Assembly (NCBI GenBank): GCA_949825045.1
Contig: OX463818.1
Location: forward strand, 26,986,906-27,050,905
Direction: 5' to 3'
Length of the DNA stretch: 64,000 nucleotides
Source of the DNA: Argyresthia goedartella
Taxonomy: Eukaryota > Arthropoda > Insecta > Lepidoptera > Argyresthiidae
Shown here: positions 6,571 through 54,200 of the stretch, in pieces
Position numbering within the stretch: position 1 is the first letter of the stretch
How the letters are laid out: every line of letters starts with the position of its first letter
Made by a program: the position numbers and the translations under genes
Notes under the pieces: model-generated
What the model was told of the DNA's origin: nothing
What the model saw: only the letters and a program-made list of their open reading frames with translations
Database searches by the model: none

Positions 6571-6813
6571 ATGTATATTCTTCATTTCAGACACATCTCG
6601 TTGGCGATGTGGCTGATCTCAGGCTTCGAGCTCTACCGCTCTGTTATATATATGTATATTCTTCATTTCAGACACATCTCGTTGGCGATGTGGCTGATCT
6701 CTGGCTTCGAGCTCTACCGCTCTGTTGTATATATGTATATTCTTCATTTCAGACACATCTCGTTGGCGATGTGGCTGATCTCTGGCTTCGAGCTCTACCG
6801 CTCTGGCCGTTTT
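6571..6813 (+). repeat. Three tandem 81-bp units inside the LTR element
   Basis: Units start at about 6571, 6652 and 6733 and are almost identical. Each contains a pyrimidine tract followed by TTTCAG|ACAC, a good 3' splice-site look-alike, then GGCTTCGAGCTCTACCGCTC. The length is a multiple of three, so a 91-codon open frame with a 27-residue repeat results. I see no sign that it is a real protein. Confidence 0.7.
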
Positions 6814-8307: not shown

Positions 8308-8913
8308 ACAAACATACTAAATTTGTTAAATGAGTTGAAAAAATTAACCACTTTCAAAAACAATACGCGAGTTAAATCGAGATCAAGACTCGCAATAGAT
8401 AATGACGATTTTATAAGAGAAATTCAAATGGAGCTCATTTCGGGCGACCTGACTGTTGGTGTTGCCTTAGAAAGATTACGATAAACTGGCATTATCATTG
8501 TCATATTGTCATTGTTAACTTATTTTAACAAATGGAGACGTGAGTGACGTTTATGAATACGGGGGTTAGTCATTAGGTAATAAATACGAAAAAGATAATT
8601 TAGTTCTTGTTGGTAAGGAACCCAATTTTGTTTTAGTCATGTGTATATGAAATAAATAAAATTATATTTTTATTAATGCAGTTTCAATAAACGGTTTTAT
8701 TCAACTTGCCGTGTTTGCTGTTGTTTTTTTGGGTCAAAGGGGGATGCAAGCCTCAATAAGGGCGCCGTCCCCACCACCAACAGACGTCAGACATATGTGA
8801 TTCGAAGCGTCTTGACGAGATAGTAATTCTATGTCGATGTTTTCCCGCAAATCCAGTTTGAATGTGAATTTTATGTACACGGAGAAAACGAGTTAATTAA
8901 TATTAATTAAATT

Positions 8914-10330: not shown

Positions 10331-13300
10331 TTTAACGCAGCGCAACTTGTTTAAGACTAGTAAAGCAACTCGTCTAATTTTAGCTACTTTCACTTGTTTC
10401 CTTTTGGTCAAGTACTTGATTGATAATTACCAAGCGCTTGGTTTCAATTAAGCGAGCAACTTGTTTAGGAATAGCAAAGAAATTCGTTTAATTTTAGCAC
10501 TGCCGACCTGACGGATTTCAGCTAAGGAGTTGGTTGATAACTACCAAGCATTTCGTTGAAATTCACCGCGCAACTTGTTTAAGATTAGTAAAGTAACTCG
10601 TCTAATTTTAGCTACGTTCACTTGTTCGATTTATGACAAGTACTTGATTGACAATTACCAAGCGCTTGGTTTCAATTAAGCGAGTAATTTGTTTAGGAAT
10701 AGCAAAGAAAGTTGTTTAATTTTAGCACTCCCGTCCTGATTGATTTCAGCTTAGGAGGTGGTTGATAATTACCAAGCATTTCGCTGAAATTAACCGAGCA
10801 ACTTGTTTAAGATTAGTAAAGCAACTCGTCTAATTTTAGCTACGTTCACTTGTGTGATTTTGGACAAGTACTTGATTGATAATTACCAAGCGCTTGGTTT
10901 CAATTAAGCGAGTAACTTATTTAGGAATAACAAAGAACTACCAAGCATTTAGTTGAAATTAACCGCGCAACTTGTTTAAGATTAGTAAAGCAACTCGTCT
11001 AATTTTAGCTACTTTCACTTGTTTAATTTTGGTCAACTATTTGGTTGATAATTACCAAGTGCTTGGTTTAAATTAAGCGAGTAACTTGTTTAAGAAAAGC
11101 CAAGAACGTCGTTTAATTTTCGCACTGCCGACCTGATTGATTTTAGCTAAGGAGTTGGTTGATAACTACCAAGCATTTCGCTGAAATTAACCGAGCAACT
11201 TGTTTAAGATTAGTAAAGCAACTCGTCTAATTTTTGCTACGTTCACTTGTTTGATTTTGGACAATTATTTGATTGATAATTACCAAGCGCTTGGTTTCAA
11301 TTAAGCGAGTAACTTGTTTAGGAATAGCAAAGAAATTCGTTTAATTTTAGCACTGCCGACCTGACGGATTTCAGCTAAGGAGTTGGTTGATAACTACCAA
11401 GCATTTCGTTGAAATTATCCGCGCAACTTGTTTAAGATTAGTAAAGTAACTCGTCTAATTTTAGCTACGTTCACTTGTTCGATTTATGACAAGTACTTGA
11501 TTGACAATTACCAAGCGCTTGGTTTCAATTAAGCTAGTAACTTGTTTAGGAATAGCAAAGAAAGTTGTTTAATTTTAGCACTCCCGTCCTGATTGATTTC
11601 AGCTTAGGAGGTGGTTGATTTCGCTGACCAAGCATTTCGCTGAAATTAACCGAGCAACTTGTTTAAGATTAGTAAAACAACTCGTCTAATTTTAGCTACG
11701 TTCACTTGTGTGATTTTGGACAAGTACTTGATTGATAATTACCAAGCGCTTGGTTTCAATTAAGCGAGTAACTTGTTTAGGAATAGCAAAGAAATTCGTT
11801 TAATTTTAGCACTGCTGACCTGATGGGTTTCAGCTAAGGAGTTGGTTGATAACTACCAAGCATTTAGTTGAAATTAACCGCGCAACTTGTTTAAAAGCAA
11901 CTCGTCTAATTTTAGCTACTTTCACTTGTTTAATTTTGGTCAAGTATTTGGTTAATAATTACCAAGTGCTTGGTTTAAATTAAGCGAGTAACTTGTTTAA
12001 GAATAGCCAAAAAAGTCGTTTAATTTTCGCACTGCCGACCTGATTGATTTTAGCTAAGGAGTTGGTTGATAACTACCAAGTATTTCACTGAAATTAACCG
12101 AGCAACTTGTTTAAGATTAGTAAAGCAACTCGTCTAGTTTTAGCTACGTTCACTTGTTTGATTTTGGACAATTACTTGATTGATAACTACCAAGCTCTTG
12201 GTTTCAATTAAGCGAGTAACTTGTTTAGGAATAGCAAAGAAATTCGTTTAATTTTAGCACTGCCGACCTGACGGATTTCAGCTAAGGAGTTGGTTGATAA
12301 CTACCAAGCATTTCGTTGAAATTAACCGCGGAACTTGTTTAAGATTAGTAAAGTAACTCGTCTAATTTTAGCTACGTTCACTTGTTCGATTTATGACAAG
12401 TACTTGATTGACAATTACCAAGCGCTTGGTTTCAATTAAGCTAGTAACTTGTTTAGGAATAGCAAAGAAAGTTGTTTAATTTTAGCACTCCCGTCCTGAT
12501 TGATTTCAGCTTAGGAGGTGGTTGATAATTACCAAGCATTTCGCTGAAATTAACCGAGCAACTTGTTTAAGATTAGTAAAGCAACTCGTCTAATTTTAGC
12601 TACTTTCACTTGTATAATTTTGGTCAAGTACTTGATTGATAATTACAAAGCGCTTGGTTTCAATTAAGCGAGTAACTTGTTTAGGAATAGCAAAGAAATT
12701 CGTTTAATTTTAGCACTGCCGACTTGACGGATTTCAGCTAAGGAGTTGGTTGATAACTACCAAGCATTTCGTTGAAATTAACAGCGCAACTTGTTTAAGA
12801 TTAGTAAAGTAACTCGTCTAATTTTAGCTACGTTCACTTGTTTGATTTATGACAAGTACTTGATTGACAATTACCAAGCGCTTGGTTTCAATTAAGCGAG
12901 TAACTTGTTTAGGAATAGCAAAGAAAGTCGTTTAATTTTAGCACTGCCGTCCTGATTGATTTCAGCTAAGGAGTTGGTTAATAACTTCCAAGCATTTCGC
13001 TGAAATTAACCGAGCAACTTGTTTAAGATTAGTAAAGCAACTCGTCTAATTTTAGCTACGTTCACTTATTTCATTTTGGTCAAGTATTTGGTTGATAATT
13101 ACCAAGTGCTTGGTTTAAATTAAGCGATTAACTTGTTTAGGAATATACAAGAAAGTCGTTTAATTTTAGCGCTGCTGACCTGATTGATTTTAGCTAAGGA
13201 GTTGGTTGATAACTACCAAGCATTTGGCTGAAATTAACCGAGCAACTTATTTAAGATTAGTAAAGCAACTCGTCTAATTTTTAGCTACGTTCACTTGTTT

Positions 13301-13440
13301 GATTTTGGACAATTACTTGATTGATAATTACCAAGCGCTTGGTTTCAATTAAGCGAGTAACTTGGTTAGGAACAGCAAAGAAATTCGTTTAATTTTAGCA
13401 CTGCCAACATGATTGATTTTAGCTAAGTAGTTGGTTGATT
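10331..13440. repeat. Higher-order tandem array: 14 units of ~227 bp (right sub-array)
   Basis: A landmark CAACTCGTCTAATTTT (variant TAACTCG...) recurs near 10366, 10588, 10817, 10994, 11219, 11444, 11673, 11897, 12125, 12351, 12577, 12806, 13037 and 13263. That is a period of about 227 bp, with one unit shortened to 177. Variant positions show a four-unit higher-order period of about 910 bp; for example the CTGACGG variant lies near 10503, 11361 and 12268. Each 227-bp unit holds about ten ACTTG-phased modules, including the perfect palindrome ACCAAGCGCTTGGT. Confidence 0.8.
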
Positions 13441-13968
13441 ACTACCATGCGTGTTGTTATTTTAACAAGTAAATTGTCAGAAAATAATCAATTTAATTTT
13501 TTGTTATTAACCATGTTTAAAAGGGTTAGTAGCAACCAAGTAATAAGTTTAGAAATTAATAAGCACTTAATTATTTATCTGAAGTATGACGTGTTAAATA
13601 TATGAATTTAATACATCATTATTGTTTATTGTTTGTCGTCGTAGTATCAAATGGTCAGCTCGTCAAGGCTCTTCGAATGACATATTTTTGACGTCTGTTG
13701 GTGGGTGGGGACTTACGCTTGCGTGGTTCTTTATTTAAATTTAATTTCTGATATATAGTACAGTTTGAAACCGGTCTACGGGAAACAAATAGCTGTGGGA
13801 CCAAGGTTAATACCTCTTATCAGAAGAATGACCCGTGGGCCCATAAAAACTGCCAGATTGAAAAGCATAAATTAAAACTAGAGCATTGGGTCTACGGGGA
13901 AAAAATAATACCCGTGGACCCACTGTGGGGCAATAGCTGTGGGACCACGGTTAATACCTCGTATGTAA

Positions 13969-31320: not shown

Positions 31321-32121
31321 TGCTACGCCGGTAGGTTAGGTCAAAAACTTTGAACGTCAATTTCAGTGCTTTAGAGGCGTTTTCAGCAGGCTGAAAAGTC
31401 ATTTCAGGCCGTTTCAGAAGTTACTCTATCACATATCTAAAGATCGAAATTTCACCCAAGTTGCCGTCGTTTTCAGGCGCCTGAAACATGTTTTCAGTCC
31501 GTTTCAGGGCACCCTCTATCAGATGACGCCATAACCTGAAAACCCGTTTTCAGGCGTTTTCAGGACCCCTTATGGGCCTCTGAAGCACAAATCGTTATAT
31601 GGCGAAATATCCGGTAGGAGTGACAGAGATAGCACTACTAGAAAGAGATAACTATACTGGGAACATTCGAGAAGTGTGTGACAGAGATAGCACTACTAGA
31701 AAGAGATAGCTATACTCGGAACATTCGAGAAGGGAGTGACAGAGAGAGTGCACCATTAGAGAGAGACATATATGGTCTCGAATGTTCTCGGCCCGCACGC
31801 TGGTCCTTACTAGAATATTCGCGATATGTGTGGACAATGTGTCCAGAGCGGCTCCGCGGGATATAAAAGGCGCCGACGTCCGGCGCGAGTTAGTTACATT
31901 TTAACTGCGATCGAGTGCTAGTACAAGGATAATCGGAGAGAAAGACTCTTCGTGTGAATAGTGAGTGCATAATTAGTGAAATAGTGTGTGTGTTTTAATT
32001 AGTGGATTTTAAGTACAGTTCGTGTGAATTGTAAGTGCGTAATTTGGGTAATAAAGTGAGTGTTTTATTTAGTGGATTAATTCGTGCTTATCTATCAAAT
32101 ACGAACCCCACGCTCGTAACA
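31321..32121 (+). repeat. 5' LTR of the intact Gypsy element
   Basis: Begins TGCTACGCC and ends CGTAACA. The promoter TATAAAAG is at 31862-31869 and a TTAGTTACATT initiator-like site is about 25 bases downstream. The segment upstream of the promoter contains 2-2.5 tandem units of about 58 bp, each carrying GAACATTCGAGAA. Confidence 0.9.
31661..31820 (+). promoter_or_regulatory. Cluster of heat-shock-element-like sites in the LTR
   Basis: Two perfect three-pentamer sites GAAnnTTCnnGAA lie at 31661-31673 and 31719-31731. Imperfect sites occur at 31780-31787 (GAATGTTC) and 31813-31820 (GAATATTC followed by GCGAT). All lie 40-200 bases upstream of the TATA box at 31862. The same set recurs in the 3' LTR (37288-37300 and 37346-37358). 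The match to the HSF consensus is seen directly; heat response is inferred. Confidence 0.6.
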
Positions 32122-32146: not shown

Positions 32147-33355
32147 ATGCCGTTAATGCCACGAGAAACCGAGCCAAAAGGAGTGACGACGCGAAGCCAA
32201 ACGTCTGGGTCTGGAGACTCGACGCCTGGTACGTCGGAATCACCTGCTCCAGCTGCACAAGGAGTAGACCTCAACGTTATCTTCGTCCTCCTCAAGGAAC
32301 AAGCGAGAGAGCTAAAGGAACAGTCGCGAAAACAGGAGGAACGGGCCAGGAAACAGGAGGAACAGGCCAGGAAACAGGAAGAACAGACTCTAATCCTCCA
32401 GAATGAGCTTAGGGAACAAAAGGATCACCAGGAGGTACAGGCACGAATGCTTCGTGAGGTACATGAGTCCACGACCGAATGGAAGAGAGAGTTGTTCGAG
32501 GTCCAGGAAAAACTGGCCGATATGGATGAAAAACTGGAGAGTCGAGTCCATGATGTCGATAAAAAAATTGAGATCTGTGAGAGCCGTCTCCAAAAACTTG
32601 AGATCAAAGTGGCTAATGGTCCAAGTACCTATGTACCCGACGCATCGGTGTCCGGAGGCGGCAGGTTCAAAGTGCCCCCCTTTGACGGTAGCTCATCGTG
32701 GACTGCCTATAAGCTGCAGTTCGAGTCTGTTTCCCAGGCTAATGGTTGGAGTAAGGAGCAAGCCAGGACAGCACTGACGTTGGCGCTGCGCGACGAGGCT
32801 CTTACCATACTAGAGGCTCTGGGAAACGACCGGACGTACGACCGCCTTCTAGAAGCCTTGGAGGCACGATACGGTGACAGTCACCTGGAGCACGTGTACC
32901 GAGCTCAGTTAAAGGACAGGGCACAAGGACGTAACGAGTCCTTACAACAGTGGGCCCTGGAAATCGAGAAGTTGGTTAGGAAGGCCTATCAACGTACGTC
33001 AGCATCCTTTGTGGACAGTATGCTGGTGCAGGCCTTCATCGATGGGATCCGTGATCTGGAAGTGAGGGCAGCCGTGCGATTGGGACATCATGGCAGCCTA
33101 AAGGATGCAGTAGCCCACGCTCTCGAGGTGGAAGCTGTACGACAGGATTCATCCAGGCCTTTCAGGGTGCGAGAAGTGTCGACTACGAAGCCAGTAGCTT
33201 CCCGCCGCGAATTTGGGCCACGTTGCTACCATTGTGGAGAACGTGATCACCTGCAGTCAGGCTGTCCAAAAAGGACTAGGAGGGACAGAGACCCCGCTCC
33301 AATGGCGAGGAAAATAGGCTCTGTGGAGTCAGAGCCCCAACAGGGAAACGAATAA
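32147..33355 (+). CDS. gag: Gag of the intact Gypsy element
   Basis: 402 residues. After a Ser/Thr/Pro-rich start comes a strongly charged coiled-coil (residues ~45-145) with repeated RKQEEQA heptad-like units. A capsid-like domain follows (FKVPPFDGSSSWTAYKLQFE, RYGDSHLEHVYRAQL, LVQAFIDGIRD), and one CX2CX4HX4C zinc knuckle lies at residues 360-373. The start at 32147 is the first ATG after the primer-binding site. The stop (33353-33355) is preceded by the heptamer G-GGA-AAC in the gag frame, consistent with -1 frameshifting into pol. Confidence 0.93.
   Translation: MPLMPRETEPKGVTTRSQTSGSGDSTPGTSESPAPAAQGVDLNVIFVLLKEQARELKEQSRKQEERARKQEEQARKQEEQTLILQNELREQKDHQEVQARMLREVHESTTEWKRELFEVQEKLADMDEKLESRVHDVDKKIEICESRLQKLEIKVANGPSTYVPDASVSGGGRFKVPPFDGSSSWTAYKLQFESVSQANGWSKEQARTALTLALRDEALTILEALGNDRTYDRLLEALEARYGDSHLEHVYRAQLKDRAQGRNESLQQWALEIEKLVRKAYQRTSASFVDSMLVQAFIDGIRDLEVRAAVRLGHHGSLKDAVAHALEVEAVRQDSSRPFRVREVSTTKPVASRREFGPRCYHCGERDHLQSGCPKRTRRDRDPAPMARKIGSVESEPQQGNE
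33343..33349 (+). promoter_or_regulatory. Candidate -1 ribosomal frameshift site GGGAAAC
   Basis: The heptamer fits X-XXY-YYZ in the gag frame, four bases before the gag stop. The pol frame is open across it, so a -1 slip would give a Gag-Pol fusion. A possible short stem GGGAC/GTCCC (33369-33373 with 33397-33401) lies downstream. Confidence 0.65.
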
Positions 33356-33366
33356 AAGCCAGGACT

Positions 33367-36300
33367 ATGGGACGTGTGCTGGCTGGCGGTCAAAATGTCC
33401 CAATTATGATATCACAGGCAAACGACGGGAATAGTCTGGTTGTCAATGGAGAAATCTGTGGAATACCATGTCTCCTTACCATAGACACTGGAGCTTCTCG
33501 GACTGTGATCAGCTCTCGGCTACTGAGACACCTGACCAGAGATCATCTAGTCCGACCTAGGCATCTCCAGCTGCAAACTGCTACCGGCCAGTACATTTCC
33601 GTCCAAGGAGAACGAGAGTTAGCTGTGAAAATAGGTGAAAAAGAATACTGGCATAAAGTGATCGTTGCTAACATCGTCGACGACTGCATTATTGGATTGG
33701 ATTTTATGAGGAGACATGACTGTAAAATCGACTTAAAGGTTGGAGTTCTAAAGTTTGGAGTTGATGAGATTCCTATACAAGGTGGAGTAAATGGAAATGT
33801 TTACTGTACCAGGAGAACCATTCTTCAACCAAGGTCACAGGTTTTAGTTCCAGTGAAATTGCCGAACTCCACAAGGCCACAATCTCACCGCTGTGTTGTG
33901 GTAGAGAGGTTGGATGCTGATAAACCGTGGATAACAGCCCGTACAATGGTAACCACGGCATCTACAGCATTTGTAAGGATCCTTAACCCAAGCGACACGG
34001 AATGCGTTCTCAATAAAGGAACGCTGGTCGGATCATGCCAAGAAATTTCTTGGATAAGAGGCTGCCGAGAATCTGAGGTAAACGTGAAACCTGGTCATGT
34101 TAAGCCTTCAATGGATGTTGAAAAATTACTAAATGACTCCAGGGAGCACCTTACCGAGGAGGAATTCCTTAAGGCGCGTAGCTTACTGCTACGATATCGC
34201 AACGTCTTTTCTTCGCATGATGATGACATTGGAAGAACTGAAGTGGTTCAGCATGAGATCGACACTGGGGAAACTATGCCTATCCGACAGCGCCCTCGGA
34301 GAGTTCCAGTAGCTCGGGAGAAGGAGGTTGAGGGCATGATCGAGGAAATGCAAAGAAGCGGCGTTATTGAACCTTCAACAAGCCCGTGGTGTTCTCCCGT
34401 AGTTTTGGTTAAGAAGAAGGACGGCACCATGAGATTCTGTATCGACTACCGTCGACTTAATGATGTAACCAAGAAGGACAGTTATCCACTTCCACGAATC
34501 GACGACACTTTAGACACATTGAACGGAATGAAATGGTTTTCAACGTTGGATCTGAAAAGTGGCTATTGGCAAGTCGAAATCAAGGACAAGGATAAGGAGA
34601 AAACGGCCTTCTCTACTGGCAAGGGACTCTGGCAGTTCAATGTTATGCCATTTGGACTGTGTAATGCACCAGCCACATTTGAGAGATTAATGGAACAAAT
34701 ATTAGCTGGACTTCTAGGAGAAACTTGCTTGGTCTATTTGGATGACATCATTATCGTTGGTAGAGACTTCAACGACCACTTGAATAAATTGGAGCAGGTG
34801 CTAGGCAAACTACGAGGGGCAAATCTGAAACTCAGTCCGAAGAAATGCTCGTTTTTCAAACGTAAAGTGAATTACTTGGGACACGTGATTTTGAAGGACG
34901 GCATCCAGACAGATCCTGGGAAGATTAGCGCCGTGAAGGATTGGCCGACGCCAAAAGACAAGACTGCAGTACGTGCCTTTTTGGGGCTTTGTTCATACTA
35001 CAGACGTTTTGTGAAGAACTTCTCGGATATAGCAAAGCCTTTGCATCAATTAACGGAAGAAAAGCGATCATTTGACTGGAACGAACAATGTGAGTCAAGT
35101 TTCAACGAGCTTAAAGGAAGACTTTGTGAAACGCCAATATTGGGGTATCCAAACCCGGATGAGGATTTCATTGTGGATACAGATGCTAGTAATACTGGAA
35201 TTGGAGGTGTCTTGTCGCAAAAGAAAGGAGATAACGAAGTTGTGATTGCATATTTCAGTAAGTCATTGTCAAAACCAGAGAGGAATTACTGTGTAACTCG
35301 GACGGAATTGCTAGCAGTTGTCAAGACGTTACAGCATTTCAGCAAATACCTGCTGGGCAAAAAGTTTCGTATCAGAACTGACCATGCTGCTTTAAAGTGG
35401 TTGCTAGAATTTAAAAACCCCGAGGGACAAGTGGCGAGATGGATTGAACAACTGCAGGAGTATGATTTCATCATCGAACACCGTAGTGGGAAATCACATG
35501 GAAATGCTGACGCCCTATCACGTAGACCTTGTGCGGACAACTGTAAACATTGCTCAAGACAAGAAGGCAAGGAATGTGTTCGAATGATGAGAACTGATAC
35601 GGTTAGCGACGAGTGGAGTGATGAAATCATGCAGCAAGCGCAACAAGAGGACCCTGACGTGAGACCCATTTTTGATTGGATTAATGCTGGCGCACCTAAA
35701 CCAAGATGGTGTGATGTAGCTCCTATGAGTGCGGTAACAAAAAGCTACTGGGCACAATGGGATAGCTTGGTTATGCATAATGGCGGTCTATGTAGAAAAT
35801 GGGAATCAACAAATGGGAAGGATGCTTACCTGCAAGTCGTTGTCCCAAAGAAAAGGGTGAAAGAAGTTTTGAGAAGCTTTCACGATGGAACCTCCGGTGG
35901 ACACCTTGGAGTAAAAAGGACCCTAATGAAAATTCGGCAACGTTTTTATTGGATTCACTGCCGAGAAGATGTTGAAAATTGGTGTAAACGATGCACTAAC
36001 TGTGCATCAGTCAAGGGACCGCATACCCGTAGCCGAGGAACGCTCAAGTTGTACAACGTAGGAGCTCCTTGGGAAAGGGTTGCATTAGATGTCGCAGGAC
36101 CTTTCCCAGCATCGGACTCCGGAAACAAGTACATTCTTGTCGTGATGGATTACTTCACGAAGTGGCCTGAAGTATTTGCCATTCCTAATCAAGAAGCGGT
36201 AACCATAGCTGAAAAGTTAGTGAACGAAGTATTCTGCCGGTTTGGGGTACCACTCGAAATCCACAGTGATCAAGGAAGAAACTTCGAGTCTGCGGTCTTT

Positions 36301-36966
36301 CAGGAGACTTGTCGCATAATGGGAATTCATAAGACGAGGACTACGGCGTATCATCCACAGTCAGATGGAATGGTTGAGAGATTTAACCAGACACTGGAGA
36401 GACATCTAGCCAAGGTCGTTGAGAGCCATCAAAAAGATTGGGATCGGCATATCCCCCTCTTCCTGTTGTCTTATAGGTCCGCAACTCACGAAAGTACTGC
36501 GGTTACTCCATCGTATGCGAATTTTGGAAGAGAACTCCGTCTGCCTGCAGATCTCCTGACTGGACGTCCGCCCGATATACCGAGGACCATCACGGAATAT
36601 GCAAATGATTTGCGGGATCGGATTGATGATGTTCACAGCCTGGTACGTGAACACGGGCTCCACGCTAGCATAAAGATGAAAACCCGATATGACCGGAAGT
36701 CTTATCAAGTGGGTTTTGAGGAAGGTTCGTTGGTGTGGCTACATAACCCTATGCGACGAGTAGGAAAGTCCCCGAAACTATCTCCGAATTGGGAAGGGCC
36801 TTACAAGGTAGTCACCAAAATAAACGACGTCACGTATCGAATCCAGCGGAATCCTCGTAGTCCGAGCAAGATTGTTCATGTTGACCGGCTAGCCAGATAC
36901 CACGGAAATAATGATGCTCGGGACGAGCATGTCTTAGGAGGGGGTAGTGCTACGCCGGTAGGTTAG
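33367..36966 (+). CDS. pol: Pol polyprotein (protease, RT, RNase H, integrase) of the intact Gypsy element
   Basis: 1199 residues from the first in-frame ATG; probably translated as Gag-Pol by -1 shift. Retropepsin has DTG at residues 40-42. Reverse transcriptase includes RFCIDYRRLND, a TLDLKSGYWQV block and the catalytic YLDD at residues 457-460. RNase H begins FIVDTDASNTGIGGVLSQ and ends with DHAALKWL. Integrase has an HHCC zinc finger (FHDGTSGGHLG...CKRCTNC) and a complete D,D-35-E triad at D908, D968 and E1004. A C-terminal GPY-like module (NWEGPYKVV) follows. The reading frame ends 19 bases inside the 3' LTR. No stops, frameshifts or lost catalytic residues were seen. Confidence 0.95.
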   Translation: MGRVLAGGQNVPIMISQANDGNSLVVNGEICGIPCLLTIDTGASRTVISSRLLRHLTRDHLVRPRHLQLQTATGQYISVQGERELAVKIGEKEYWHKVIVANIVDDCIIGLDFMRRHDCKIDLKVGVLKFGVDEIPIQGGVNGNVYCTRRTILQPRSQVLVPVKLPNSTRPQSHRCVVVERLDADKPWITARTMVTTASTAFVRILNPSDTECVLNKGTLVGSCQEISWIRGCRESEVNVKPGHVKPSMDVEKLLNDSREHLTEEEFLKARSLLLRYRNVFSSHDDDIGRTEVVQHEIDTGETMPIRQRPRRVPVAREKEVEGMIEEMQRSGVIEPSTSPWCSPVVLVKKKDGTMRFCIDYRRLNDVTKKDSYPLPRIDDTLDTLNGMKWFSTLDLKSGYWQVEIKDKDKEKTAFSTGKGLWQFNVMPFGLCNAPATFERLMEQILAGLLGETCLVYLDDIIIVGRDFNDHLNKLEQVLGKLRGANLKLSPKKCSFFKRKVNYLGHVILKDGIQTDPGKISAVKDWPTPKDKTAVRAFLGLCSYYRRFVKNFSDIAKPLHQLTEEKRSFDWNEQCESSFNELKGRLCETPILGYPNPDEDFIVDTDASNTGIGGVLSQKKGDNEVVIAYFSKSLSKPERNYCVTRTELLAVVKTLQHFSKYLLGKKFRIRTDHAALKWLLEFKNPEGQVARWIEQLQEYDFIIEHRSGKSHGNADALSRRPCADNCKHCSRQEGKECVRMMRTDTVSDEWSDEIMQQAQQEDPDVRPIFDWINAGAPKPRWCDVAPMSAVTKSYWAQWDSLVMHNGGLCRKWESTNGKDAYLQVVVPKKRVKEVLRSFHDGTSGGHLGVKRTLMKIRQRFYWIHCREDVENWCKRCTNCASVKGPHTRSRGTLKLYNVGAPWERVALDVAGPFPASDSGNKYILVVMDYFTKWPEVFAIPNQEAVTIAEKLVNEVFCRFGVPLEIHSDQGRNFESAVFQETCRIMGIHKTRTTAYHPQSDGMVERFNQTLERHLAKVVESHQKDWDRHIPLFLLSYRSATHESTAVTPSYANFGRELRLPADLLTGRPPDIPRTITEYANDLRDRIDDVHSLVREHGLHASIKMKTRYDRKSYQVGFEEGSLVWLHNPMRRVGKSPKLSPNWEGPYKVVTKINDVTYRIQRNPRSPSKIVHVDRLARYHGNNDARDEHVLGGGSATPVG

Positions 36967-37748
36967 GTCAAAAACTTTGAACGTCAATTTCAGTGCTTTA
37001 GAGGCGTTTTCAGCAGGCTGAAAAGTCATTTCAGGCCGTTTCAGAAGTTACTCTATCACATACCTAAAGATCGAAATTTCACCCAAGTTGCCGTCGTTTT
37101 CAGGCGCCTGAAACATGTTTTCAGTCCGTTTCAGGGCACCCTCTATCAGATGACGCCATAACCTGAAAACCCGTTTTCAGGCGTTTTCAGGACCCCTTAT
37201 GGGCCTCTGAAGCACAAATCGTTATATGGCGAAATATCCGGTAGGAGTGACAGAGATAGCACTACTAGAAAGAGATAGCTATACTGGGAACATTCGAGAA
37301 GTGTGTGACAGAGATAGCACTACTAGAAAGAGATAGCTATACTCGGAACATTCGAGAAGGGAGTGACAGAGAGAGTGCACCATTAGAGAGAGACATATAT
37401 GGTCTCGAATGTTCTCGGCCCGCACGCTGGTCCTTACTAGAATATTCGCGATATGTGTGGACAATGTGTCCAGAGCGGCTCCGCGGGATATAAAAGGCGC
37501 CGACGTCCGGCGCGAGTTAGTTACATTTTAACTGCGATCGAGTGCTAGTACAAGGATAATCGGAGAGAAAGACTCTTCGTGTGAATAGTGAGTGCATAAT
37601 TAGTGAAATAGTGTGTGTGTTTTAATTAGTGGATTTTAAGTACAGTTCGTGTGAATTGTAAGTGCGTAATTTGGGTAATAAAGTGAGTGTTTTATTTAGT
37701 GGATTAATTCGTGCTTATCTATCAAATACGAACCCCACGCTCGTAACA
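36948..37748 (+). repeat. 3' LTR of the intact Gypsy element
   Basis: Virtually identical to the 5' LTR, with TATAAAAG at 37489-37496. Followed directly by the ATAT duplication and resumption of the envelope relic. Confidence 0.9.
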
Positions 37749-42205: not shown

Positions 42206-45200
42206 CTAGTGCCTCGCGTCGCGGCGATGTTCGCGCTCGCGCTCGCGCTCGGCAGGGTCGCGGCGCTCGCGGTACCTCTGCTCGTCGTAGTAGGCGGCAG
42301 CACGCGGCTTGCTGCTGCTGCTGCTGCTTGCCGGCGCGTCGCCAGCACCGCCCGCCTCCGCCGCGTCCGCTGCCGGGGACTTGTTGCGCGCCCTGAGGGG
42401 GAAGGAACATTACACATCTCTTTCTCTCTCGCCCATGTAGGCATGCTCTTGTTCCCTCCCGCGCGCCGCTACCCCCTCCAGCCCCCTCCAGCCCCCTCCA
42501 GAATGTATACCGGACGAAAGTGTTGTGTACCGTCGTCATCATGATCAGCCTGTCAGGGAACCCACAGCGGGCGAAGTGCGAGTTTTCAATAAAATTGACT
42601 TACGAAACGCCAGTTTTGTATAAAAAAGTCACGTGACCAGCGAGTCGCAAGCTCGTTAGTCACGTGACTTTGCTATACAGAATGGCGTTTTACGGCAACG
42701 TGATAGGAAAGTCAAATTTATTGATAACTCACACTTGCTTACTGGTGCGTATTAGGCCTCCTCACATTAAGCCATTCCACTACTGAGTTGAGCGAGGATC
42801 TATGTCGTCGGAACAACTGGCATGCGGTCTACCGACTAATGTTTGGCCTCCTCTTCATACCAAGATCGCCGAAAAACGTAAAAACACGTCTCTTGATAGT
42901 TGTGTCCACGTCTAACCAGATATTCAGAAGCTAACCCACAGCCGCGCAGCTATGGAGATTATGAATGATGTAATAAAAACCTTATTACATCATTCATAAT
43001 CTCCATAGCTGCGCGTGCGAAAAGGGAAGGCACGTGACAACGCAGCGCCATCGAAGGTGACGCTAACAAAATGAATAAATTTACCTCTCCTCCCGACTGT
43101 GTCCCCTGTTGTAGTGGTCGGCACGCTCGCGGTCCCGGGAGCGTGACCTTTCGCGCTCGCGGTCGCGGTAATCCCGGTAGTAGCTGCTGCTGGGACAAGC
43201 AAACGTAAACGTTTATAATCAGTCACATACACGTTAAGGTCTGTTCACTTAGATAGCGCCCTGGAGCTCCATTTTTGAATCACTCGCCTCGGAAGCGAGC
43301 GCTTTCCAAGCGATACGATTGGTGGAGCTTAGTTACGTCGAGTGATAAGAACCAATCGTTGCGCTTGGCGAGCGCTCGCCACGACGCGAGTGATCAAAAA
43401 TAGAGCTCCTGGCGATCGTGGCTTCCTTTGAGTGAGTGTCGCCATTCTTTAACAAGAGCCGGCAAGTGCCAAGGCGGCACGATGAAAGGCGGCGCTGTCT
43501 AAGTGAACAGACTATACAAACATGTTCTTCAAACTCATGTTCAACACTTGTTTATAGACAAAGTAAAGGATTTGACGTTTGTTTTGAGGTCAAACTGTGT
43601 TTAATATTTCTTGTAGTAACACAGTTACATTTCAAATAAACGTAATTAGTAGTTTATGTGACCGCTACATAATGGAGGGCATCAATACTCGAGAGAGGCG
43701 AGTTTCATAATAATATCACTCGAGAGTTTTAATGCCTAATTATGTACAATTACATACACTAGTTTATCTACACACATATCATAAGCTCTCTTTGATGTGT
43801 TCAGGATAGGGCATGCACCCGGGTATACCCGGTTCCTAACTACCCGGGTATACCCGGGTATACCAAGGTCTCGAAAGACCCGGTTCTGAAGAAGCATACC
43901 CGGTTCCCCCGGTTCTTGAAAAATACTAAAATTACTTAATTCCGCATTCAAATCAACCGCGGCTGAGCCATTAGCGCGTGATTTAAATTCGCATTGTCAC
44001 AAAAGCACGATAAGGCAACATCGCGCCGCCGGTCGCGCGAGATATACCTACTGCATGCACGCACCCGTACACTTCCCATGTCTGCAAACACTATTAGAGA
44101 GATGGTTTGCAGACATTGCGATGAAAAGAAGAAAGAGCAAAAAAAATAATAGAAAAGCTTTTGTCTGAAAAAGTAAAGTTCGCAATTTCATTCGACGAAT
44201 GGACTTCAAACAGAAACCGCAGATATTTAAGTTTAAATACACACTCACCATATCTGAGCGGACCCAACAAATTCAAAAATTTAGGACTCATAAGGGTTTA
44301 CGGATCATTACCAGCAGAAAAATGTATTGAACAGATCAATCAAAAACTCGAATGCTTCGGAATTTCCTTAGAAAGGGACGTTGTTGGAGAAACTACCGAT
44401 GGGTGTAGCATGATGGTAAAAATCGGTAAACAACTGAAATCCTTACACCAAAAATGCATTGCGCATGCAATTCAGCTGGCTATATCAGATGTCTTCTACA
44501 AAAACGCTGTTGCTATGGATGAACATCAAGTAGATGTTGAAGAACATATTGATGAGGATGATATGCCGTTAGCTGAACTAGCCCCGCTGTTACACCGAGA
44601 TGCTAGAAGTAGTGAAACTACTAACGATTATAATATTAGAGAGCATTCAGATTCAGAAGCAAGTGGCGATGATAATGATGACGGTGTTGAATTTGTACAA
44701 GAAACAAGGGGGCAAGTGTCGCATTTCAGGTATTTTGATTTACTAGACAAAGTCCGGAAAGTAGTCAAGATATTTAAAAAATCTCCGACAAAAAATGATG
44801 ATATTTTACAAAAACATGTTAATTCTAACTTCGGAAAAGAATATATTTTGATTCTGGATGCAAAGACAAGGTGGAGTAGCATCGCAGATATGCTACAACG
44901 TTTTCTCAAACTCAAAGTATGCATCACAAAAGCGCTACTTGATATAAATTCTGAGATTACCTTGAGCCAAGACGAATGGACAACTTTAAATGAGCTTCAC
45001 GAGATTTTGGACATAATGAAAACTATCGTTGAAAGTTTGTGTCGCCGGGATGCATCCTTGTTAACAGCTGATGTCGCAATAAAATATGCATTGAAAAAAA
45101 CTGAAAAGGATGAATACAGCTATAAGTAAGGAAATGGAAAATTCTTTAAAGAAAAGGTACTTGCAGCGACGACTTATAGAAGCAGCTACACTTCAATACT

Positions 45201-48200
45201 TAACGAACCCGGACCAATACTTTGCTGATTTTCTAAATGATGATTTGGCGGTATTTCCTTGGCCCTCTTGCGATAAAATGTGCAGGGGTATCGTTAATCT
45301 CGTACAGCCATTGTCAATGATCGAACAATGCGATATATGTGAGCAAGGTGAAGATGAGGTGGGAAATGCCGATGAATTCGATGTCATTCTTGTCCCAGAC
45401 CTGATTATGTCCAAAAAAGATGAGCTTGATATAGAGATGCAAAAAGCTACAGCCTTAAAAAATAAGACGAGACATCAAGACCGCGACGCCTACTTTACAA
45501 CAGTCAAAATAGAAATGGCATTGTTTGAAAACGGTGGAAGTCGTGGTAAAAACCTTTCACTAGCATATAACTATTTAAGAACCATACCACCAACCAGTGT
45601 AAAGCCTGAAAGAATTTTCTCCTCAGCGGGCTACATTTGCAATCGCTTGCGCAGCTCGTTAAGTGACAGGAGCCTAGATGTGATAAGTTACTTACGATCT
45701 CACTACCACGAAAAAAATATTTCCAATAAAGCTATTAATTAAAATAAAAACGAAAATATGGTGATTTGTTACTTTAGGTAATAAAAAAGAAATTATTTGT
45801 TGTGTTTTATCATGTTGCTGTTACTCATATGAATATAAAAAGATAATTTATGCTGTTTATTAAAAAGACTGATTAATGTTTAGTTAAAGCTTTTGTGTTC
45901 CTATAATATTCCTGTTATGTAATGAGAAAAATGACAGTTTGAAACTATAGTGTCCTAATAAATGTTGATTTGATATAATTTGCCAACTTTCTTATTTCAT
46001 ATCTCGTAATAACGTTATACACTTTCAGTTTCTGTGTGATATATTTGATATTACAGTTTTATGAGCCGGAACCGGGTGCACCCGGTGCACCCGGTTCTGA
46101 CGGCTCCCAGAACCGGGTCTTAAAAATCTGGAACCGTGACCGGTTCTGCATGCCCTAGTTCAGGAACCGCATGTTCGACCGGCATTGTGGCATTGATCAT
46201 TGCTCTGCAGTTGTTTAGCTTGTTCTGTAGTACCAACTTTACAGACAAACTAGGGGCGGCACATAGGCGGCGTTCGAAATTTGAAATTTCATAATTTGAC
46301 AAATTTTGGTACATTATGGTCATAATGATCAATATTCATAAGAGAAATGAGTTTTTACCAAGAAGTTTATCATTATGCTGGTCGTAACGTGTGGGTTTTG
46401 GACGCAGTAAAGAGGGTTTATGATACGTGTGTAGATAAACTACTATTATGTCCGCACTTACACATGGCCCTAATATATTAACGTCGGTGGATAGATGCAT
46501 ATAGTCAGTGCACGTCACGACCTACCCTAATGCGAAGCGTATGATCGCAGTCCTAAAGACACACGAAATATGCACGGTACAGTCAGCATCAAATATATGT
46601 GAGCAGGTTAGCTACTCAATAACATATACACATCTTAAAAAATCAGAAATATCTACACAGCCAACGTGTCAAAATTATGTCAACATCCAAGTTAACTCTA
46701 AGGAAGTTGACATAATTTTGACACTTTGGCTGTATAGATATTTATGATTTCTAAGATGTGTAGATCTTTTTGAGTAGCTAACCTGCTCACATATATCTGC
46801 TGCTGACTGTACAAATACAAATTTCACAAAGGTTTCGAATTCGCAACTGTACAATTGTCCCTTTCTTCCCCAGTGTCAGCAACAGACATTGCTTATGTCA
46901 CCAGACTGTTATAGTCTCACGTGAGTCGTGACGCATTCGATCGAGAGAGGTCTTGTTGGACGCGAGGCCCAACGTGCCACCAACGTCATAGATTCATGCG
47001 ACGTGCGTGAGTGAAGCGGTGACAGAGGTAGGTTTTATAACAATTATGGATACTGTGTTCACTGAGTAGTTGGCTCGTACACCGGAAGTAGTTGGGGAAT
47101 AGTTGTGGTAGTTAAAGATGAGCACCAAGTAAAGACGAGTAGTTTATTGTAGTATTCTGTCCTACTGTTAATTGGTGACTAAATAATACTATGTAAAATA
47201 AGGTACAACATAAAACTAAGAAATGCAACTAAGATATGAAAAGTAGGTAATCGACGCGCGCATGGAATATCTACGCGTTGATAGACTTATGTTTTAGATA
47301 GATTTATGTTTTTATTTGTCTGACATGATAATGGTGATGACTGATGGATGATTGATGATGCAAGTACTGAACAGTGATGCACATTTTAATGCTAATGGTT
47401 ATAGAGATTGGAGAAAAAACATTCCAAATTGAATGACTCCAAAATTTGGACTTAGACGACAGAAAATACTTAATCTATTAAATGCGTGTCGGACTCTCAC
47501 ACGAAGGGTTCCTTACCACCGACAAACTATATAAAAAGTACATGCCCGAACTAGGGTTCGAACAATCACCGCTACAGACAGCGGACCCGACGTTAAATCC
47601 AGCACAGCCGAAACGATTATAGATGGCGTGAAATTATTTATCGATTATATTTGATTGACGATGATTTGGTGATTCCCAGGGGCAGGGGATATTAAAACAA
47701 AACTAAGTCTCTTGTATGAGGACCCCCCCTTTAATTTATAAAATCTTGTGTAGTTAATTATATGTTACTATAGCAGCAACAGAAATACACATTCTGTGAA
47801 AATTTCCGACTTTCTACTTATTACGGTTCATCAGTAGAGCACTGTGACGTCAGACAGACTGACAGACAGACGGGCAGCGGAGGCTTAGCAATAGTCCCAT
47901 TTGACTTTTTTCGGGTACGGAATCCTAAAAACTAATCTACTCTGTAATATCGTGAATTTGTGTAGCCGACAGGATTCCTTTAGTATATGTAATGCTATCT
48001 AGAGATGGCCGCAATTATGAAGAATATAATACCTATATACCGTTAGGCTCACACTGAGAGGCTGTCTGCCTTTGACTGACTTGCGGAGCGAATCGGTCGC
48101 AAATACAATGTCGAGTGAGCGGCGAACTGTAGAAAATTACAATTAGCCGCGGAACACTGGCGAACTCTTGTGAAGTGAAACTGTGGAAGTATAGTGTATT

Positions 48201-51200
48201 GTCTAGTCACTGACCGGTCTGACATATAGCGGGAATTCGCGGTAAGAGGCTGCTAGATATTATTCCATTGCTAGGAGTAGTATGTTTGTTTGTGGTGTGG
48301 AGTTGTGAAGTGCTTGCTTTGCTCACCGGTCCCTGTCGTCGCGCTCGCGCTCGCGACTGCGCTCGCGGTAGCGGCTAGCACTGCGCTCGCGACGGCGAGG
48401 CGCGGCACTGCTGCGGTGATGTGCCCGCGCATCCCGCTCGCGCTCGCGACTGCGCGTGCGCTCGCGCCGCGTGCGTTCGCCGCTCGAGTACGACTTGGTC
48501 TCGACGCCGTGCAGCGTGTCTTGGAGCGACGAGATGAGAATCTTGCAGCGGTCGTCGTGCGCCACCTGTTCAAACGCTCCATGCATTATTCGCTGTACAT
48601 CGCTCGCTCGCTGCTCACGGGAGATTTACTCGGTCTCGGTAGTGTATGCGTATTTTACTGAAATATGTGTTCTTTTGTTTTAACATTATTTGCCATTCTC
48701 ACTTTGCACAGACCATACATAAAAGTGGACGCCACCCAATATGTATGCGCTGCTAACCAACCGTGTATTATTTGTATTTGTACCTTGCTCTGCTTAATGA
48801 GCGATATCGCGGTGACGAGCGATACAATGAGCTTAGACCACATGCCGTACCATGCTCTGCTTGAAGAGCGATAAAGCGGTGACGAGCGTCACAATGAGTA
48901 TAGAACACATGACATACCTTCTTGCTCTGCTTGATGAGCGATATGACGGTGACGAGCGTCACAATGAGTATAGAATACATGACGTACCTTGCTCTGCTTG
49001 ATGAGCGATATGACGGTGACGAGCGTCACAATGAATATAGAATACATGACGTACCTTGCTCTGCTTGATGAGCGATATGGCGGTGACGAGCGTCACAATG
49101 AGTATAGAACACATGACATACCTTCTTGCTCTGCTTGATGAGCGATATGACGGTGACGAGCGTCACAATGAGTATAGAATACATGACGTACCTTGCTCTG
49201 CTTGATGAGCGATATGGCGGTGACGAGCGTCACAATGAGTATAGAACACATGACATACCTTCTTGCTCTGCTTGATGACCGATATGACGGTGACGAGCGT
49301 CACAATGAGTATAGGACACATGACATACCTTCTTGCTCTGCTTGATGAGCGATTTTTTTCATAATTTCTTTATTGCACACAAATAATTATATTGACAAGA
49401 TATATATTAAAATTGTGTACAAAGGCGAGCTTATCTCTAACAAGAGATCTCTTCCAGCAAACCATGTCAGGATGAGATAGGTTAATCACAGAGCACGGGT
49501 AGACCGATGTGTACAACATACCTTAAATTAGAACTCAATAAACTACATACATAAAATATACATCCTAAATATAAATAAATATTAAATATATATACATATA
49601 TAAATTATAAATACATAAATACTACCTATATTTCTAAAGAGATAGGAAGTGCTTCTTCACACGACTTTTAAAGATATTGAGAGTAGAGCTATCCCTGATG
49701 GTGCAGGGGAGTGCATTCCACAACCGAATGGCCCGGAGTCTAAACCCGTGCTCGTAAGTTGCGGTGTTATGTTGTGGGGTCGTGAGTATAGAAACTGTGT
49801 GGGTCCTCCGAGGCCTGCTGGAAGAAACAAATTGAAAACGGTCTCGTAGGAAGGTTGGATAGCGTGGATTCCGCAAAATGTTGTAGAGGAGTTGGAGGAT
49901 GTGAGAATCCGATAAAGCGATATGACGGTGACGAGCGTCACAATGAGTATAGAACACATGACATACCTTCTTGCTCTGCTTGATGAGCGATATGACGGTG
50001 ACGAGCGACACAATGAGTATAAAATACATGACGTACCATGCTCTGCTTGAAAAGCGAAGTGGTGGTGACGAGCGTCACAATGAGTATAGAACACATGACA
50101 TACCTTCTTGCTCTGCTTGATGAGCGATATGACGGTGACGATCGTCACAATGAGTATAGAATACATGACGTACCTTGCTCTGCTTGATGAGCGATATGAC
50201 GGTGACGAGCGTCACAATGAGTATAGGATATATGACGTACCTTGCTCTGCTTGATGAGCGATATGACGGTGACGAGCGTCACAATGAGTATAGAATACAT
50301 GACGTACCTTGCTCTGCTTGATGAGCGATATGACGGTGACGAGCGTCACAATGAGTATAGAATACATGACGTACCTTGCTCTGCTTGATGAGCGATATGA
50401 CGGTGACGAGCGTCACAATGAGTATAGAATACATGACGTACCTTGCTCTGCTTGATGAGCGATATGACGGTGACGAGCGTCACAATGAGTATAGAGTACA
50501 TGACGTACCTTGCTCTGCTTGATGAGCGATATGGCGGTGACGAGCGTCTCGATTGCGGACGCGTACTCGCCGGCTGCCGCGTCGCTCACGGCACGCGCGA
50601 TCGCAGACGACGACACCGTCCTGTGCACCAACCACAATGTATCATTCAATATTGTCTAAACGCAACATTGCAAACCCCAGAAACTCAACCTGCCTTGAAG
50701 AGTACGCCTAAAAGGCCATTATTATAAAAACAAAGACGAGTGGTCAATAATAAAGTTGGCCAGATCCAATCGGTTTCAGTTAGCGGTTCAAAATGACGCT
50801 CCTACTAACCTTAACCTAACCTTAACCCTACATCTTGGAAGGAAATGCTAGAAAATAAATGATGGCAACATAAGTGGCATATTAGCGGACTACTACGTGA
50901 CCCAATTAACAAACAAAATATTTAATTTCAAAAAAACACAGAGTACTCTGTAAATGTTGCCAGCATTTATTTTCTAACATTTCCAGCCAAGGGATACCTT
51001 TCTATTACACCAGCCCCCGTAGTCAAGTTGCATTCGATAACTTATCACTCGCTACGACTCAATGGAAATGTATGTGATTTGACATTGCCATGCAAAGTAT
51101 CAGGGGACTAGGGAGGCTGGCTTCAGTTATTGCTCATTTTGAACAAGGGATGAGAAAGCATATAATATATTGTTTGTTTATCTGCGTCACCTGTTCCTTC

Positions 51201-54200
51201 CCATGACCTCCTCGAACTCGGCCTCGCTGATGGGCGGGTGCACCACGTGCGGCACGTGCGGCACGTGCGGCACGTGCGGCGCGAGCGCCACGTGCGGCAC
51301 GTGCGGCTGCGGACAAACAAACAGTTAAACCCGATCCCACATGACGACGCGCGAACTTCTAACACCACGCCAAAAGGGAGGTCTGTCAGTAACTAGAGAA
51401 TACTCCAGAGCGTAGAGATATCCTCGAACTTTATCAATTTCAAATATTAAGAATAAACTGTCTTTATGCTTTCCAAGTTCCCAAAACTTCCGATAAAAAC
51501 TTGTAAACGTTGGTTTGTATGAATTTTATTTGTAGAATTGACCTATTATGCAGGGGGGCTTTTGAGATATTGACAGACATAAATCAAGTAATCAAGGCCG
51601 GCAAGTGATAAATGACAAATCCTACTTACTTCAAATAACAACTAACCACACCTCATTCACAAGCGCCCGCAGCATGCCGAGCGCGGCGCGGGTATTGTCG
51701 TGTGAAAGTGGGGGACAGAGCTATTCGCTATATATATCTCTGTCCCTCACCCTCCCGTCCTACTGGCTACTGGCTACAGGCTACAGCCCACTGAGTGCAG
51801 TACAGTATACCTGATGCGGGTGTTGCTGCGGCGCGTGGTGGGCGGCGGGCGGCAGGTGCGGGTGCATGTGGGCGGGCGGGGCGGCGTGCGGGGGCGCGCG
51901 GGCGAGCTCGCCGCCCACAGGCGGGTAGCTCTGCGGAGAGACCACGCGTTCTTGAGATATGACAGGACGGCTCTTTGATCATCACAGTACTAGAGTGACA
52001 GTGACAGTAAGAAGAGGCAAATACTCTTTGCCTCTTCCATTTAAGAGAAGTTGACGATACAATCTCAACAATGAGTTGTATCTAAATGTAGCCTATTTAA
52101 TAATGTCCCTACCGAGGGGCAGAGGCGTTTACCCGGATACAAACAAGATTAAGCCATGCTCCACCAAGTTGGCTCAGTGCGGGTTGATAAAATAATTATC
52201 TCAATGGTACATGCGTCAGATTCAAACTTGCATTTCTGTGTGAGAAGCAAGCCTGAAACCCGTTAGACCACGGAGCCATTCGGACTTGTATCGCAGTGTA
52301 CAATTTAAATGTAATATTTAAATTCGAGTAAAAAATATGCAATGAGACAGAAATTTAATAAGGCTATCAAGTCCGTCCATTTCCGGGAGTATCCGGTAAG
52401 AATCGTCTAAAAAAAACGGGGGTAGCGTAAATTTCACATGGCTAACATCACATATTCCACTTCAACCCAACCTCATTCCGACTTCATGTCCCAATCGAGC
52501 AATTATTTAAGCAACTGGTTTTGATCTAGGGAAAATTTGGCATAGGACTGGGAAAATGAAATCAAGGTGGCAAAACATATAAGTATTATGTCGAATCACT
52601 ATCATACAATGTAGGCGATAGTTAGTGCTCTGTCCGAAAATAGTTGTTTCTACATAATGATGACATTGTCCCTGAGTTGTTTCGAAACTACTGCTTCGAC
52701 TGCTCTCTACTTGACTTACTCTATTTTTACACGTCCTCAGCTACAGAGACGCGTCGACGCGGCACACGAAAATGTGAAATCATGGAGTGGACTACATATA
52801 AGAGCAGTGATGGTGCTCAGTGCGGTACCTGCGGTGGGACCTGCTGCGGCGGGCGGCCGTAGGGCTGCGGCCGGGCGCCGGGCGGCGGGCCCTGCGCCGG
52901 GGGCGGTGCGCCGTGCGGGTGCCCGTACGGGGGGCCCGGACCTGCGGGGCGGACCGTGTCGTTAACTGGACAAGGATTGGACGACGGTACTGTCGTTGAG
53001 CCACCGAGAAGCGATCGGCACCTCATTAGGCGAAAACTTGGCTATGGAACTGATATGTTATTATCTATCTCTTACTACTGTACTGTGTACTAACTGAAAT
53101 ATAAGCTCTTTCGTGTAAGCCATTCCCTTGTTGCATAATCTACCACCCAACAAGCAGACTGAAAATTTCTAAATAGTACCTACAAGCACTTTTTTCGGCG
53201 GCTGCTGGTTGGCTTGCTTGGCTGGTTGGCTAGGTATAGTCTATGTACCTGGAGGTCCAGGCTGCGGCGCGTGCTGTGCGCCAGGCGGGGTCTGCGCGTG
53301 CGCGGGCGGCTGCTGGTTGAAGAACGCCGGGTTCACATGCGGGGCGGGTGCGCCCGGGCCTGCGCCAATAGAGACGAGGGGTCAGCGGAGATACGGAAAT
53401 CACTATTGGTACTATAACTATTTGGGGTCGGCTAGACGAGATGAAGGACGGTGGACCAAAGCAGTCACAGAGTGGTGGCCAGGGGGAGCGAGCCGAGCGA
53501 CCAGTGGGCAGACGAACTCGGCCGGCTCTATCATCAAGTCGACGGGATCTCGCTCGCTCGATGCGATTGGCGCAGAGCCGTCAGGATTGGCGCTTTAGTG
53601 CTCATGTGGACGGAACATGATGTCTGAATGCTCAAACTGCTGCTTGAGTAAAGTGAAACTCATACCATACTACATGTAATAAGCAGGGTTAGTTGGCCAT
53701 GCAGGAAATCATAGGAAGTAGTCGTGCAAAAATATAGTGTCACAAAGGCAAGTCGGAGTCTCGGTAGTAATTTCGGGAATGCCACCACTTTCCCGCTTCT
53801 CTTTCAATTTACTTTTAATGTAAGACAAATAACAGGAGCTGTCATGTCATCACATCATCATACCAGAGTATAGCTTGTCAAAGTCACTCTTCCTCCCTAT
53901 TAGATAAACTTTCTCATCACCACACCCAAAGCCCCCCGTGTTAGTCGCTCGTAAGTAAAGAAATATGAACAGTCCGTACCTGGGTAGCCGTTCATACCTG
54001 GATGCTGCGGCGGGGGGCCCCGCGGCGGGCCCTGCTGGTGCGGGCCCCCCATCTGGTGGTGCGGCGGCGGCATGCCCTGCCCGGGCGGCTGCGGGGAAGC
54101 GGGGATCTTAATGTTGTTAATATATAGAAGGCCGTAAGTTTGTTACATTGCACTCCATTATGTTTGTTGGTGACTTAATGTATTCGCACTAACACTGCTG

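What the first reader, a model, noticed from the sequence alone, without database searches (positions are those of the whole stretch)
48781..50620. CPSF6 intron built from ~17 tandem copies of an exon end plus its own 5' splice site
The real exon (50509-50620) is followed by repeats that each carry its last ~14 codons and a strong donor (AAG|GTACGT or AAGAAG|GTATGT). The spliceosome therefore faces up to 18 near-identical 5' splice sites in a row in a gene for an RNA-processing factor. Units are 67 or 70 nt, so each skipped donor shifts frame, and one frame meets a stop (TTG-TGA). Donor choice could thus tune CPSF6 levels. Some units keep the exon's GCC codon (near 49058 and 49195) while most have GTC, suggesting ongoing turnover or conversion. 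The array is seen directly; regulation is inference.
Basis: partly seen in the sequence, partly recalled or inferred. Interest (0 to 1): 0.82.

Follow-up and report, generated by a model that had tools for sequence, protein, structure and literature searches.

The report
Minisatellite repeating a CPSF6 splice donor
In a moth or butterfly gene for the RNA-processing factor CPSF6, a piece of DNA spanning the end of an exon and the start of the next intron has been copied about 17 times, so the splicing machinery meets 18 look-alike cut sites of which only the first keeps the protein intact.

Summary
The array is real. On the minus strand, CPSF6 exon 50620-50509 is followed by 17 head-to-tail copies (67 or 70 nt) of its last 40 nt plus 27 nt of intron, giving 18 aligned 5' splice-site positions; 16 are GTACGT or GTATGT. 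Donors are moderate: predicted U1 pairing energy is weaker than at 9 of 10 other donors of this gene, match counts are mid-range. In a hand-built 13-exon model only donor 1 gives full CPSF6. Donor 2 shifts the frame and donors 3-18 reach one shared stop; all 17 put a stop 153-1973 nt before the last exon junction. Best reading: a minisatellite born by tandem duplication across an exon-intron border, tolerated because donor 1 is used often enough, the other donors giving at most unproductive, probably NMD-bound RNA. Regulation is untested. A similar kind is published, the human 6-16/IFI6 minisatellite supplying multiple donors (seen only as citations and one passage). This is a larger, frame-breaking insect member. 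No RNA data or relatives' genomes were reachable.

The parts
50509..50620 (-). CPSF6 exon encoding [37 protein letters not shown]; ends AAG|GTACGT, phase 0 at the donor
   Evidence: conserved motif in homologues
50503..50508 (-). donor 1 (GTACGT), the only donor of 18 that gives full-length CPSF6 in the model
49916..50508 (-). exon-proximal half of the array: 8 whole copies (ending at donors 2-9) plus the 5' part of the split copy
49354..49915 (-). insertion, sense to CPSF6: ORF end (LWNALP...[12 protein letters not shown]), AT-rich 3' part, AATAAA at 49374, short A run; ATCGCT on both sides looks like a 6-nt target duplication
   Evidence: class (3' end of a non-LTR retrotransposon) is a recalled resemblance, no family search was run on it
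48784..49353 (-). exon-distal half of the array: 3' part of the split copy (donor 10) plus 8 whole copies (donors 11-18), mixing AAG|GTACGT and AAGAAG|GTATGT types
48845..48850 (-). donor 17, degraded (ATG|GTACGG), weakest predicted U1 pairing in the array
48778..48783 (-). donor 18, GTACAA, nearest the 3' splice site; weaker pairing energy but 7 matches to U1
48327..48565 (-). next CPSF6 exon (acceptor GAACAG|GTGGCG), encodes [26 protein letters not shown] and the start of the RS-rich tail
43085..43189 (-). penultimate coding CPSF6 exon in the model (RS-rich tail)
42206..42392 (-). last coding CPSF6 exon in the model, ends DARH*

Best explanation
A minisatellite. A segment of the last 40 nt of a CPSF6 exon plus about 27 nt of intron was duplicated in tandem, then expanded and partly homogenised by unequal exchange or slippage to 17 extra copies, and a retrotransposon fragment later landed in one copy. 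Donor 1 is the productive site. Donors 2-18 are by-products, most of them with the same predicted U1 pairing as donor 1. Whenever one is used, or the intron is kept, the transcript gets a premature stop upstream of later exon junctions and is most likely degraded. The array is thus a tolerated splicing load in an important gene, not a switch. Shown: array, gene model, frames, stops, unit relationships. Inferred: duplication route, donor 1 use in vivo, decay.
For: Tandem units with identical copies (3, 4, 5, 13 and 16 identical; 12 and 14 identical, with the extra AAG set aside), mixed 67/70-nt types and TRF periods 67, 137 and 204 in the distal half. Changes from consensus average 0.85 per column in 27 intron columns and 0.55 in 40 exon columns, and fall evenly on codon positions 8/8/6, so the copies do not evolve as coding sequence. 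The real exon keeps Ala where 12 of 17 copies have Val; of 197 homologue records held, 168 have the motif: 167 Ala, 1 Thr, 0 Val (29 without the motif dropped). Only 1 of 18 donors keeps the ORF; 17 of 17 others give a stop 153-1973 nt upstream of the last exon junction. U1 pairing and unit folding show nothing that singles out a switch.
Against: As recalled, work on competing identical donors favours the one nearest the 3' splice site, so donor 1, the farthest, should be at a disadvantage. Nothing computed favours donor 1: 14 of 17 other donors have equal or slightly stronger predicted U1 pairing and 12 of 17 are predicted more accessible, donor 18 most of all (0.23 against 0.013). Of the last copy's 4 differences from the exon, two are synonymous (GCG, ATT), so it may once have been coding. 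A load in so central a gene is itself odd.
Confidence: 0.7

Rival explanations
1. Donor-decoy rheostat: many competing donors divert a set fraction of CPSF6 transcripts into NMD, and the fraction responds to U1 or SR-protein supply or to CPSF6 itself, so the array works like a poison exon.
For: All 17 extra donors produce a stop upstream of later junctions; 16 of 18 donor hexamers are GTACGT or GTATGT, and 15 of 18 have U1 pairing of -6.4 or -6.8 kcal/mol; RNA-processing factors often regulate themselves this way (recalled).
Against: No junction data. Intact donors may reflect only recent expansion and homogenisation (identical copies). No conservation outside this genome could be tested.
Confidence: 0.12
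2. Stepwise intra-array splicing: each copy starts with a donor and carries a CAG|AGCAAG acceptor-like site 6 nt (9 nt in 70-nt copies) before the next donor, so the array can be removed unit by unit; a micro-exon AGCAAG left behind would add Ser-Lys in frame.
For: The CAG scores 4.16-7.41 over the 17 copies (4.85 in 10 of 17, a value reached by 5.6% of background AGs) against 4.35 leave-one-out for the real acceptor at 48565.
Against: The score matrix rests on 11 acceptors, and for one real acceptor 43% of background AGs score at least as high. Scored with the full matrix the real acceptor at 48565 reaches 11.59. The AAG at the unit end scores poorly (70-99% of background at or above it). The same CAG lies inside the real exon (score 4.23), where it is coding.
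Confidence: 0.05
3. The array protects the intron: clustered U1 sites suppress premature polyadenylation at the AATAAA of the sense-oriented insertion, or UGUA motifs in the copies recruit CFIm, CPSF6's own complex.
For: The insertion carries an AATAAA (49374) in the transcribed orientation, with a donor 46 nt downstream and others upstream; 10 UGUA in 1161 nt of array without the insertion.
Against: UGUA density is only 8.6 per kb against 6.1 per kb over the gene. The insertion splits a copy, so the array came first and protection cannot be its origin. The nearest upstream donor is about 590 nt from the AATAAA.
Confidence: 0.04
4. Assembly artefact: the true locus has fewer or no copies.
For: Tandem repeats are prone to misassembly; no reads or second assembly could be examined.
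Against: Copies differ by linked variants in an irregular order and one is split by an insertion with no full copy elsewhere in the window, which a simple stutter would not create. Copy number may still be wrong.
Confidence: 0.05

Closest known systems
Human 6-16 (IFI6/G1P3) minisatellite providing multiple splice donor sites (Turri, Cuin and Porter 1995, NAR 23:1854; paper not held; seen in the reference lists of PMC2572611 and PMC4526556 and in one sentence of PMC4526556)
   Same: Minisatellite whose repeat units serve as splice donors; the sentence seen says two downstream repeat units are used as donors, giving three mRNAs.
   Different: There the unit is short (12 nt, recalled) and alternative use gives different protein isoforms. 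Here the unit is 67-70 nt, carries 40 nt of coding exon, shifts frame, and each of 17 alternatives meets a stop. Human interferon gene versus insect CPSF6; the array here is split by an insertion.
Internal tandem repeats at exon-intron boundaries of human duplicated genes (PMC2812944; passages seen)
   Same: Minisatellite expansion at exon-intron borders altering introns; 27 intron modifications reported.
   Different: Average unit 30 bp repeated 4 times there; here 67-70 bp with 17 extra copies, and no evidence here of a new intron or of repeats kept in mRNA.
[quoted passage not shown] PMC4974935 abstract and introduction read)
   Same: Duplicated segment contains AG|GT; in the potato case it also crosses an intron-exon border.
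   Different: In those cases a new intron arises in the duplicated region; here the repeat lengthens an existing intron at its 5' end and the duplicated exon ends are left as intron.

Membership tests
Minisatellite supplying multiple splice donors (6-16/IFI6 type) | tandem repeat spanning an exon-intron border with a donor-like site in each unit | tested here: met
   18 aligned donor positions, 16 with GTACGT or GTATGT
Minisatellite supplying multiple splice donors (6-16/IFI6 type) | more than one donor used in real transcripts | not testable with these tools
   no RNA reads available; the protein search is a weak negative
Intron gain by tandem duplication (Rogers model) | duplicated segment contains AG|GT | tested here: met
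   14 of 17 copies have AAG|GT and all 17 keep a GT; 2 have ATG|GT in place of AAG|GT (donors 50036, 48850) and one copy is split by the insertion but also ends AAG|GT
Intron gain by tandem duplication (Rogers model) | a new intron absent from relatives | not testable with these tools
   only protein records of relatives were obtained, which show no intron positions
Poison-exon / NMD autoregulation | alternative splice products carry a stop upstream of a later exon junction | tested here: met
   17 of 17 alternative donors in the model
Poison-exon / NMD autoregulation | product level controls the choice | not testable with these tools
   needs perturbation and RNA data
CPSF6 (CFIm68) | sequence homology including the RRM and the RS-rich tail | tested here: met
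   PDB CPSF6 3q2s_C E 1.1e-29 over query 1-152; Papilio machaon record P0001 E 4.3e-48 for query 420-545; tail exons by tblastn

The most novel reading that the evidence does not exclude
The array is a natural titration device for U1 and SR proteins: an 18-donor competition in which one outcome makes CPSF6 and seventeen make NMD substrates, so copy number and factor supply set CPSF6 output, and copy-number changes between individuals act as a tunable knob on global poly(A)-site choice.
Probability: 0.1. Interest if true: 0.8.

Novelty: new member of a known kind. Interest (0 to 1): 0.45.

Why it matters
It is a ready-made natural experiment on how a spliceosome picks one of many near-identical donors at nearly equal spacing, in a gene where only the one farthest from the acceptor works. 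Competing-donor rules come mostly from engineered constructs with few sites (recalled). Junction reads from this one locus would test them at 18 sites, and would show whether a minisatellite can impose or tune a splicing cost on a central RNA-processing factor.

Tried and rejected
UGUA (CFIm site) enrichment in the array: 8.6 per kb against 6.1 per kb for the gene, not pursued. Hairpin-driven expansion: DNA folds of array units are ordinary (z -0.76, -0.96, -1.23; exon end -1.55). Donor masking by RNA structure: array donors (0.001-0.045, donor 18 0.23) overlap the other donors of the gene (0.00008-0.033), and donor 1 is not favoured. Recursive splicing at the unit-end AAG: scores below most AGs. 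In one search the CAG position was taken 3 nt off for copies ending AAGAAG; one search corrects it. The first gene models were wrong at one exon end (fixed) and ended at a false stop, 48325-48323; homology to Papilio showed two further exons. An apparent match to array peptide in P0143, P0152 and P0153 was an unrelated VRHV in a proline-rich stretch. Rfam at gathering threshold and ARAGORN found nothing in the window. The array-peptide protein search is uninformative: it did not even return ordinary CPSF6 proteins.

Literature: searches found 0 papers; some found 1 each and 51 found 2, none about such arrays by title and abstract; one found 11 on CPSF6 with autoregulation words, none opened; one found 97, of which 15 were listed and 1 opened (PMC2812944); PMC11506328 passages had nothing on this. 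A C. elegans paper on intronic minisatellites and alternative splicing (PMC4039745) was seen only in the listing.

Full report
What is there. The finding lies on the minus strand of a CPSF6 gene. A hand-built 13-exon model within the window (56865 to 42206), placed by splice signals and homology, has consistent phases and an open reading frame ending DARH*. Its RRM region matches solved CPSF6 (3q2s_C, E 1.1e-29). The three best hits to its first 110 residues are lepidopteran (Papilio machaon P0001, P. polytes P0065, Operophtera brumata P0008), and P0001 is also the best hit to the end of the query. The species itself was not identified. CPSF6 exons before WATD were not found in the window.

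The array. After exon 50620-50509, a unit running from GTACGTCATG through GACGCTCGTC to AGCAAG repeats. There are 18 donor positions: 10 GTACGT, 6 GTATGT, 1 GTACGG and 1 GTACAA. Of 17 copies, 11 are 67 nt, 5 are 70 nt and one is 638 nt because of an insertion. The extra AAG of the longer copies precedes the donor; all 6 AAGAAG donors are GTATGT followed by CATGTG, while single AAG mostly precedes GTACGTCATGTA. Copies 3, 4, 5, 13 and 16 are identical and 12 equals 14 once the AAG is set aside, while copies 8, 17 and 18 are the most diverged. Copies 2-6, next to the exon, are nearly uniform; the distal end is the most decayed. The exon part of copies differs from the real exon by 0-6 of 40 nt. 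I could not decide whether the ancestral intron began GTACGTCATG or GTACAAATAC (which follows the last copy), because no relative's DNA was reachable; two of the last copy's four differences from the exon are synonymous, which leaves open that it was once coding.

The insertion. 562 bp (49915-49354) in sense orientation: an ORF end that looks like a non-LTR retrotransposon (recalled resemblance; no family search was run on it), an AT-rich 3' part, AATAAA at 49374, an A run, and ATCGCT on both sides. It splits one copy and array units lie on both sides, so the array came first.

What each donor would do. Joining each donor to the acceptor at 48565 and the downstream exons, donor 1 gives the full protein (641 residues counted from WATD). 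Donor 2 gives a shifted frame with a stop 153 nt upstream of the last junction. Donors 3-18, and full intron retention, reach the same stop after residue 496, which for the donors lies 382-1973 nt upstream of the last junction. The RS-rich tail would be lost or replaced in all 17. By the usual junction rule (recalled, and less strict in insects) these are NMD substrates. A protein search with the array-encoded peptide returned nothing, but it is insensitive: ordinary CPSF6 proteins were not returned either.

How good the donors are. The 10 other donors of the gene range from -4.3 to -11.1, and 9 of 10 are stronger than the array donors. By strict match count the picture is milder: the array donors have 7 matches; 4 of 10 others have 8, 2 have 7 and 4 have fewer. 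Among 796 background GTs, 49 are at least as good as -6.4 and 35 as -6.8. These are moderate sites. Donors 50036 (-4.9), 48850 (-4.3) and 48783 (-5.6) are weaker by energy. The last two are nearest the acceptor, which is what one expects if donor 1 must win, but edge decay of tandem arrays also explains it, donors 50036 and 48850 share changes and are not independent, and 48783 still has 7 matches. Predicted accessibility does not favour donor 1: 12 of 17 others are more open, donor 18 most.

Selection. The exon keeps GCC (Ala). Among 197 homologue records held (the best 120 of 447 and the best 120 of 162 from two searches, merged), 168 have the motif: 167 Ala, 1 Thr, 0 Val; 29 without it were dropped. 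Twelve of 17 copies have the Val codon there. Changes in the exon part of copies fall evenly on codon positions (8, 8, 6). The copies are thus not kept as coding sequence, while the exon is.

Best reading and rivals. The simplest account is a border-spanning minisatellite, tolerated because donor 1 is chosen often enough; how donor 1 wins is not explained by anything computed here. A rheostat, stepwise splicing through acceptor-like CAG sites, and protection from premature polyadenylation were considered; the evidence for and against each is listed. The CAG scores like the real acceptor only in leave-one-out scoring with an 11-site matrix; with the full matrix the real acceptor is far ahead.

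Known kind. Human 6-16/IFI6 has a minisatellite that provides multiple splice donors (Turri et al. 1995; not held; known here from citations and one sentence). Tandem repeats at exon-intron borders are known more widely (PMC2812944, passages), as is intron gain by such duplications (PMC4974935, abstract and introduction). I found no report of this CPSF6 array; the searches were made, in an open-licence library only, and not all listed papers were opened. It is therefore filed as a new member of a known kind, unusual in unit size, copy number, frame-breaking design and host gene.

Noticed in passing
43192-43184 (minus strand): The acceptor of the penultimate CPSF6 exon is CAGCAGCAG (three AGs 3 nt apart), a possible tandem acceptor varying a serine run.
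   Followed up: no
51244-51307: 9-bp coding repeat in a CPSF6 exon giving PHVPHVPHV.
   Followed up: no
6566-6805: 81-bp unit repeated 3 times, each with a TTCATTTCAG acceptor-like stretch, lying between two similar stretches about 2.17 kb apart (from 5500 and about 7671), each with a 64-bp x3 array; looks like an LTR-type element.
   Followed up: partly
8911-13447: Long 46-, 114-, 228- and 434-bp satellite-like tandem arrays.
   Followed up: no
33280-36963: Retroelement pol ORF with protease, RT, RNase H and integrase domains; similar 58-bp x2 repeats flank it at 31617-31745 and 37244-37372.
   Followed up: partly
46577-46812: Near-perfect inverted repeat (65- and 49-nt arms, 91-92%), MITE-like, in a CPSF6 intron.
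   Followed up: partly
44125-45742: Plus-strand ORFs of 334 and 215 aa within a CPSF6 intron; the 334-aa one had no Pfam match at E 0.001, the other was not scanned.
   Followed up: partly
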